From the NCBI GenBank assembly GCA_021815405.1, contig JAKAGV010000008.1, forward strand, positions 186,001 through 250,000: a stretch of DNA of 64,000 nt. The letters run 5' to 3'. A program made the position numbers and the translations under genes. The stretch comes from Bacteroidota bacterium. Lineage in GTDB: Bacteria; Bacteroidota; Ignavibacteria; Ignavibacteriales; Ignavibacteriaceae. This document shows, piece by piece, positions 20,435 to 20,749 of this stretch (the first letter of the stretch is position 1; each line of letters starts with the position of its first letter). The notes under the pieces are model-generated. The model made no database searches. It had not been told where the DNA came from and worked only from the letters and a program-made list of their open reading frames with translations.

Positions 20435-20749
20435 TAGTTTTGCTTTTAACTTCAGTCATTTTCAATCTCATTTCGATCATTTTCAGAATTCATTTAATGA
20501 TTTTAAAAGTCAATTTGGTGATTTAAAAAACCATTTCGGTCATTTTTAATTATCGATCAGTCATTTATAAATCCAATTCGATGATTTTTCATGTCCGTTT
20601 GATCATTTAAAAACCTAATTTGATGATTTACAAAGTGCAATCGGTCATTTTAAATCTCAAGTTGTTCATTTAGAACTTCCTTTCAGTCTCTTAAAAATTA
20701 ATTTTGATTCCTTAAAAAATCATTTCGCTATTTCAAAGAACAAAACAAA
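20435..20749. repeat. Tandem array of ~15 degenerate 21-bp units
   Basis: T[C/G]ATTT-type anchors start at 20435, 20456, 20477, 20498, 20519, 20540, 20561, 20582, 20603, 20624, 20645, 20666, 20687, 20708 and 20729: exactly 21 bp apart, no indels. Confidence 0.9.

What the first reader, a model, noticed from the sequence alone, without database searches (positions are those of the whole stretch)
20435..20749. Fifteen degenerate 21-bp units in perfect phase, with no indels over 315 bp
Anchors (consensus about TSATTTWAAAWYCMATTTCGR on +) recur every 21 bp without exception while the unit sequence has diverged strongly. Spacing kept while sequence drifts implies selection on phase; 21 bp is two helical turns, and the A/T tracts recur about every half unit, so intrinsic curvature or a phased protein/RNA-binding scaffold is plausible. 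It is not CRISPR: there is no constant-repeat/unique-spacer split.
Basis: seen in the sequence. Interest (0 to 1): 0.85.

Follow-up and report, generated by a model that had tools for sequence, protein, structure and literature searches.

The report
21-bp DNA arrays with partner proteins
Next to genes for small, uncharacterised helical proteins, this bacterium and its relatives keep strings of 10-20 loosely similar DNA units, each exactly two turns of the double helix long, and the symmetry of the units matches the build of the neighbouring protein, which points to a previously undescribed kind of DNA-protein module.

Summary
In detail: 15 units of exactly 21 bp at 20435-20749, far beyond shuffles. 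It is not a one-off. The same genome holds about ten such arrays per 0.86 Mb, all of period 21 (or 2x21) but with different unit sequences. Arrays sit beside small all-helical protein genes. Four such protein families, searched in whole genomes, gave loci of which 43/51 carry an array, against 12/296 control genes (p about 1e-35). A curated but functionless family (PQLLE) repeats the link in other classes of the phylum. Unit symmetry follows protein architecture. Single-domain D proteins have palindromic 21-bp units; duplicated two-domain A, G and PQLLE proteins have directional 21-bp units; C proteins have 42-bp palindromes. Unit sequence co-diverges with the protein. Arrays collect substitutions but few indels, show no coding signal and no RNA covariation. 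Some arrays without a gene share the consensus of a gene-linked array elsewhere. Best reading: B-DNA lattices of sites, two helical turns per unit, for the partner protein. Direct binding and cellular role are inferred. No solved or viral structure matches, and the papers searched describe nothing like it. Counter-evidence: D homologues in some other families lack arrays.

The parts
20435..20749 (.). Array A: 15 degenerate 21-bp units, no indel, non-coding; directional (non-palindromic) by the circular dyad test. Weak unit-like sequence may extend to about 20415.
19610..20284 (-). Partner gene (family A): 224-aa all-helical protein, two tandem helical domains plus Gly/Pro-rich tail; its start codon faces the array. 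Below the cut-off of the NCBIfam PQLLE family (28 of 80 bits).
20285..20434 (-). 150-bp spacer between array and partner start codon, with a ribosome-binding-like AAAGGAG just before the ATG. Spacers of this kind are the most conserved upstream part in three of four ortholog pairs (0.03-0.11 substitutions per site against 0.15-0.23 in the array).
37262..37480 (.). Second, more decayed 21-bp array in the same window, palindromic units, no recognised partner gene; lies next to a transposase-like ORF.

Best explanation
The array is a stretch of B-form DNA that carries some 15 adjacent recognition sites for the helical protein encoded next door (19610-20284, minus). Each site is two helical turns long, so bound molecules line up on one face and can pack into a continuous nucleoprotein filament; that is why the 21-bp phase is kept while base identity drifts. 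One protein domain would cover about one turn: a single-domain protein bound as a dimer gives a palindromic 21-bp unit (D family), a fused two-domain protein gives a directional 21-bp unit (A, G, PQLLE), and the C family gives a 42-bp palindrome of two alternating 21-bp palindromes. Different modules in one genome would use different, co-diverging unit sequences, and some arrays without a gene would be sites served in trans. SHOWN: the array, its phase conservation, the gene-array linkage, the symmetry rule, co-divergence, shared consensus between a gene-linked and gene-less arrays, no coding signal, no covariation. INFERRED: direct binding, filament formation, one domain per turn, trans action, and any cellular role (autoregulation or local chromosome structure).
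For: Linkage: 43/51 loci of families A, C, D, G have an array against 12/296 control genes in the same genus, Fisher p 1e-35; side and distance are constant within a family. Replicated with curated family NF052641: 5/5 above-cut-off members and most weaker ones have 21-bp arrays, in other classes too; family G in other families of the phylum, 5 loci. Symmetry: D 15/15 arrays with dyad z 1.8-4.4; A 0/11 and G 0/15 significant; C 6/7 palindromic at 42 bp (z > 3). Out of sample: PQLLE-type directional with one exception; three new D-type arrays z 2.0, 2.3, 3.8. A and G proteins are internal duplications (E 2.6e-11 and 6.7e-10) seen as two helical domains in models of pLDDT 91 and 87; the C-terminal half of G weakly resembles D (E 1.8e-4). 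Co-divergence: Mantel r 0.80, 0.61, 0.66 (p 0.0005, 0.001, 0.01). Phase: 15 indels in 18,151 bp; 7 vs 37 indels in ortholog pairs. Shared consensus: gene-less array F equals the array of gene L252 (z 7.9); array-A-type sites recur at contigs 11, 23 and 10 of the genome and in relatives. No RNA covariation: 0.471 paired vs 0.464 shuffled. The G gene has its own terminator before the array (L199 1453-1490).
Against: No known DNA-binding motif or fold was found, and the proteins are only mildly basic or even neutral (median pI: A 8.5, C 6.4, D 8.6, G 9.0). D-family homologues in other families of the class have no detectable array (L338-L352 and others), so array and protein can be separated. About half the arrays in the sampled genome have no recognised partner gene nearby. 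Ancestry alone could make protein and array similarities correlate. Arrays were found by periodicity, which favours indel-free ones.
Confidence: 0.6

Rival explanations
1. The array is transcribed into a non-coding RNA of repeated elements that the neighbouring protein binds, for example as an RNA antitoxin or a ribonucleoprotein scaffold, in the manner of type III toxin-antitoxin systems.
For: Gene plus tandem array, cognate and diverging pairs, several pairs per genome and patchy distribution resemble ToxIN-type loci; the array is upstream of the gene in A, C, D and PQLLE.
Against: No base-pair covariation within palindromic units; in family G the array is downstream, behind a terminator; period fixed at 21 across unrelated sequences fits B-DNA (10.5 bp/turn) better than RNA; no ribonuclease-like family match; units are far more numerous and more degenerate than ToxI repeats (PMC8860590).
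Confidence: 0.18
2. The arrays are minisatellites made by slippage or unequal exchange, decaying neutrally; the gene link is hitch-hiking.
For: Some arrays show higher-order repeats (4-unit blocks in L193), so local duplication does occur; gene-less arrays exist; substitution rates in arrays equal those of flanks.
Against: Indel shortage in orthologous arrays (p = 0.003), 21-bp period kept over unrelated sequences and lineages, gene linkage at p 1e-35, and the symmetry rule have no neutral explanation.
Confidence: 0.08
3. The array is a decayed or hidden protein-coding heptad repeat (21 nt = 7 codons).
For: Some frames read as heptads with few stops, e.g. HFQSHFD HFQNSFN DFKSQFG on + and an open 88-aa frame in L193.
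Against: Stops are as frequent as in column-shuffled units in all eight arrays tested; substitutions between orthologs fall evenly on the three codon phases (66/59/79 in the four alignable pairs).
Confidence: 0.04
4. The array acts by intrinsic DNA curvature or as a generic nucleoid-protein site, without a private partner protein.
For: Array A and several others are AT-rich with A/T tracts in helical phase.
Against: GC-rich arrays with the same period exist; unit sequences track the private neighbouring protein, and symmetry tracks its architecture.
Confidence: 0.06

Closest known systems
ParR-parC and TubR-tubC plasmid centromeres (PMC5016525)
   Same: A small protein encoded beside an array of about 10 short repeats binds it as a helical nucleoprotein complex; one dimer per iteron; array often upstream of the operon.
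   Different: ParR is a ribbon-helix-helix and TubR a winged-helix protein with a motor partner (ParM, TubZ) in the same operon. Here no such fold or motor gene was found, units are 21 bp and highly degenerate, many modules coexist on a chromosome, and some arrays lie far from any partner gene.
Type III toxin-antitoxin systems, ToxIN/CptIN/TenpIN (PMC8860590)
   Same: Tandem repeat array next to a small protein gene; cognate pairs diverge together.
   Different: ToxI is an RNA pseudoknot repeat of about 32-36 nt in few copies, upstream of the toxin with a terminator between; here arrays are 21-bp, degenerate, without covariation, and downstream in one family.
NCBIfam NF052641 (PQLLE family) and Pfam PF19775 (DUF6261)
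   Same: PQLLE members carry 21-bp arrays upstream like family A, and family A hits the model weakly (E 1.2e-6).
   Different: Family A stays below the curated cut-off. Neither model has a described function; no paper in the library mentions PQLLE, and the only paper that mentions DUF6261 is unrelated.
Plasmid replication iterons and MLVA-type minisatellites
   Same: Tandem units of about 20 bp.
   Different: From general knowledge: iterons bind Rep proteins at origins and are near-identical; minisatellites vary in copy number and phase; neither has a symmetry rule tied to a neighbouring gene family.
Intergenic TAACTGA repeats of Beggiatoaceae (PMC4679880)
   Same: Many intergenic short direct-repeat sets scattered over one bacterial chromosome.
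   Different: 7-bp unit, proposed post-transcriptional role, no partner protein gene beside each array described in the abstract.

Membership tests
CRISPR array | Constant repeat alternating with unique spacers, near cas genes | tested here: not met
   Every column of the unit drifts, no constant/unique split; the real CRISPR array of this genome looks quite different (L065 10999-11606)
Type III toxin-antitoxin | RNA antitoxin repeats that fold, upstream of the toxin gene with a terminator between | tested here: not met
   No covariation; array downstream in family G; no terminator-like site between array A and its gene
Type III toxin-antitoxin | Protein is a toxic endoribonuclease of the ToxN fold | tested here: not met
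   All-helical models, no PDB match at E < 0.1; toxicity itself not testable here
ParR/parC-type partition system | DNA-binding protein of RHH or winged-helix fold | tested here: not met
   Foldseek and HMM searches
ParR/parC-type partition system | Motor NTPase gene in the same operon | tested here: not met
   Neighbours of array A are fatty-acid, aminotransferase and transporter genes; other module loci lie among unrelated genes
ParR/parC-type partition system | Protein binds the array and multimerises on it | not testable with these tools
   Needs gel shift, footprinting or cryo-EM
NF052641 PQLLE family | Score at or above 80 bits | tested here: not met
   28.3 bits for the 224-aa protein; another protein of the same genome, L279, scores 131 and also has an array
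Protein-coding heptad repeat | Open frame kept and synonymous-site excess | tested here: not met
Structured RNA family (Rfam 15) | Match above gathering score | tested here: not met
   Only two tRNAs in the window

The most novel reading that the evidence does not exclude
A widespread, undescribed class of chromosomal modules in the Bacteroidota and relatives: a helical protein of a new DNA-binding type reads B-DNA one domain per helical turn and coats a private lattice of 21-bp sites. Tens of mutually distinct modules per genome, plus gene-less arrays in trans, would form many independent nucleoprotein addresses on one chromosome.
Probability: 0.45. Interest if true: 0.93.

Novelty: categorically new. 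Interest (0 to 1): 0.86.

Why it matters
If the partner protein binds its array, this is a new DNA-recognition module with a simple code (domain count sets unit symmetry; period is exactly two turns) and many natural cognate pairs that differ in sequence. That would give a ready set of site-specific DNA-coating proteins, would explain a large body of 'hypothetical' helical proteins and intergenic repeats in the Bacteroidota, and raises the question of why a bacterium keeps dozens of private nucleoprotein lattices. Even if binding turned out to be to RNA, an array-plus-protein module of this frequency would be new.

Tried and rejected
CODING: rejected by stop counts and codon phase. RNA HAIRPINS: consensus palindromes in D looked like stems, but no covariation. 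MITE ORIGIN: a MITE of about 125-150 bp lies within 750 bp of 5 of 10 arrays, but it is common (33 copies in 0.86 Mb) and absent from the others. PROMOTER OR TERMINATOR ROLE: arrays occur in divergent, tandem and convergent gaps, so not a general promoter or terminator feature. POSITION CONSERVED AT THE AMINOTRANSFERASE: relatives G003, G001 and G004 lack it there; G012 has a related gene-less array there. RFAM, PADLOC, PHROGs, plasmids: nothing useful. STRUCTURE SEARCH: no match at E < 0.1 in PDB for G or A, none convincing in viral models. DIFFERENT PERIODS: 16- and 24-bp repeats near G homologues (L260, L270, L267) are simple repeats, not the same thing. UNIVERSAL LINK: rejected; D homologues of several other families have no array. 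LITERATURE: ten searches found no description.

Full report
WHAT IS IN THE WINDOW. Positions 20435-20749 split into 15 units of 21 bp without an indel. Matching at lags 21, 42 and 63 is 0.57, 0.59 and 0.54, other lags lie near 0.29, and 1000 dinucleotide shuffles never exceed 0.377 for any period from 10 to 39. The array lies in the divergent gap between a 224-aa gene on minus (19610-20284) and an aminotransferase on plus (21496-22647). All frames carry stops, no more or fewer than units with shuffled columns.

NOT A SINGLE CASE. A period scan of 0.86 Mb of the same genome found about ten degenerate arrays outside coding sequence. Apart from one 22-bp (2x11) array they all have period 21, or 42 = 2x21, while their unit sequences differ. 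Samples of three other genera of the same family (0.40 Mb) and of two other species of the same genus (0.29 Mb) had none; a third species, G012, had two in 0.09 Mb.

A PARTNER GENE. Four of these arrays (A, C, D, G) flank small helical proteins of unknown function. Whole-genome searches with the four proteins gave loci L199-L258 in about 16 genomes, patchily distributed. Nearly all have a 21- or 42-bp array beside the gene, on a fixed side per family: upstream in A, C and D (usually 50-220 bp before the start codon), downstream in G. At a fixed threshold 43/51 loci of families A, C, D and G have an array, against 12/296 control genes of the same genus and 0/102 of other genera. Several of the misses are genes at contig ends. 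An independent test used the curated NCBIfam model PQLLE (NF052641), to which the window protein is weakly related: 5/5 members above the cut-off and most weaker ones have 21-bp arrays, in other classes of the phylum too. Family G members from other families of the phylum have them as well (L261-L265). DUF6261 members show them less clearly.

SYMMETRY FOLLOWS PROTEIN ARCHITECTURE. A circular dyad test against column-permuted profiles gave z = 1.8-4.4 for all 15 arrays of family D and no significant value for 11 arrays of A and 15 of G. Family C arrays are palindromes of 42 bp made of two different alternating 21-bp palindromes (6 of 7 with z > 3). D proteins have about 126 residues, a single domain. 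A and G proteins are internal duplications (half-versus-half profile E 2.6e-11 and 6.7e-10), seen as two helical domains in AlphaFold models (pLDDT 91 and 87). The C-terminal half of G resembles D (E 1.8e-4). PQLLE proteins, related to A, were not used to form the rule; their arrays are directional with one exception, L303. Three further D-type arrays found last have z 2.0, 2.3 and 3.8. No internal duplication was detected in C, so the rule is open there. One domain per helical turn is the simplest reading; it is an inference.

CO-DIVERGENCE AND SHARED SITES. Within families, protein identity predicts array-profile similarity (Mantel r 0.80, 0.61, 0.66; p 0.0005, 0.001, 0.01). Common descent of a linked unit would also give this. 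More telling, some gene-less arrays share the consensus of a gene-linked array elsewhere in the genome: array F on contig 23 equals the array of gene L252 on contig 1 (z 7.9), and array A-type sites recur at contigs 11 and 23. A profile of array A found further copies on contig 10 and in relatives, among unrelated genes. This is what a protein acting in trans on several arrays would leave.

DNA OR RNA. Paired columns of palindromic units do not covary (0.471 against 0.464). The family G gene has a terminator between gene and array (L199 1453-1490). The period is 21 in AT-rich and GC-rich arrays alike, which is two turns of B-DNA. In ortholog pairs arrays take substitutions about as fast as their surroundings but have few indels (185 substitutions with 7 indels against 306 with 37; p = 0.003), and some of the seven are one-base gaps that may offset each other. 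Over 59 arrays a cyclic profile fit needed 15 indels in 18,151 bp. Caveats: arrays were found by periodicity, and the fit penalises indels. Together this favours a DNA lattice over an RNA.

WHAT IT MOST LIKELY DOES. The best-supported mechanism is a nucleoprotein lattice: the partner protein recognises a 21-bp unit and neighbouring molecules pack on one face of the helix. The position upstream of the gene in most families suggests autoregulation in addition; the gene-less arrays suggest local chromosome organisation or regulation in trans. Neither role was tested. Against it stand the lack of any known DNA-binding fold, the near-neutral charge of C proteins, and D homologues without arrays.

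COMPARISON WITH WHAT IS KNOWN. It works like ParR-parC or TubR-tubC in outline (PMC5016525) but fails their defining features of fold and motor gene. It resembles type III toxin-antitoxin loci in layout (PMC8860590) but fails on RNA structure and position. Solved-structure and viral-structure searches gave nothing, and ten literature searches found no description.

Noticed in passing
window 21157-21279: MITE-like element with terminal inverted repeats (CTCACGTTACGCACA...TGTGCGTAACGTGAG) and an internal TCATGCTGAACTTG stem; about 33 related copies in 0.86 Mb of this genome, within 750 bp of 5 of 10 arrays.
   Followed up: partly
L065 10999-11606 (G000 contig 23): Ordinary-looking CRISPR array with a repeat of about 41 nt, beside the family G gene and its 21-bp array.
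   Followed up: no
families A, A2, C and L237 of D: Several otherwise unrelated partner proteins end in the same Gly/Pro-rich tail, such as GG..DTPPPTPPAQ; possibly a shared docking or sorting tail.
   Followed up: no
L193 12475-12789 (G012): Gene-less array directly upstream of a nuoA-like gene with a higher-order repeat of four 21-bp units (84 bp), evidence of block duplication.
   Followed up: partly
L338-L344 (family f16 and G625) and L345-L352 (family f7): Homologues of the D protein without any detectable array; a natural contrast for function.
   Followed up: partly
L124 298-708 (Chitinophaga MAG contig): Array of about ten 41-bp units with a GTGGCGGCCAC palindrome just upstream of a gene; may be a 41-bp relative of the same idea.
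   Followed up: no
L068 7946-8080 (G000 contig 23): Array of period 11 (22) bp, GTATAAAATGA-like, one helical turn per unit.
   Followed up: no
L002 1486-1570 next to 1801-2100: Two arrays of different consensus side by side between convergent genes: four units of array-A type, then about 14 palindromic AAGSAA-TTSCTT units.
   Followed up: partly
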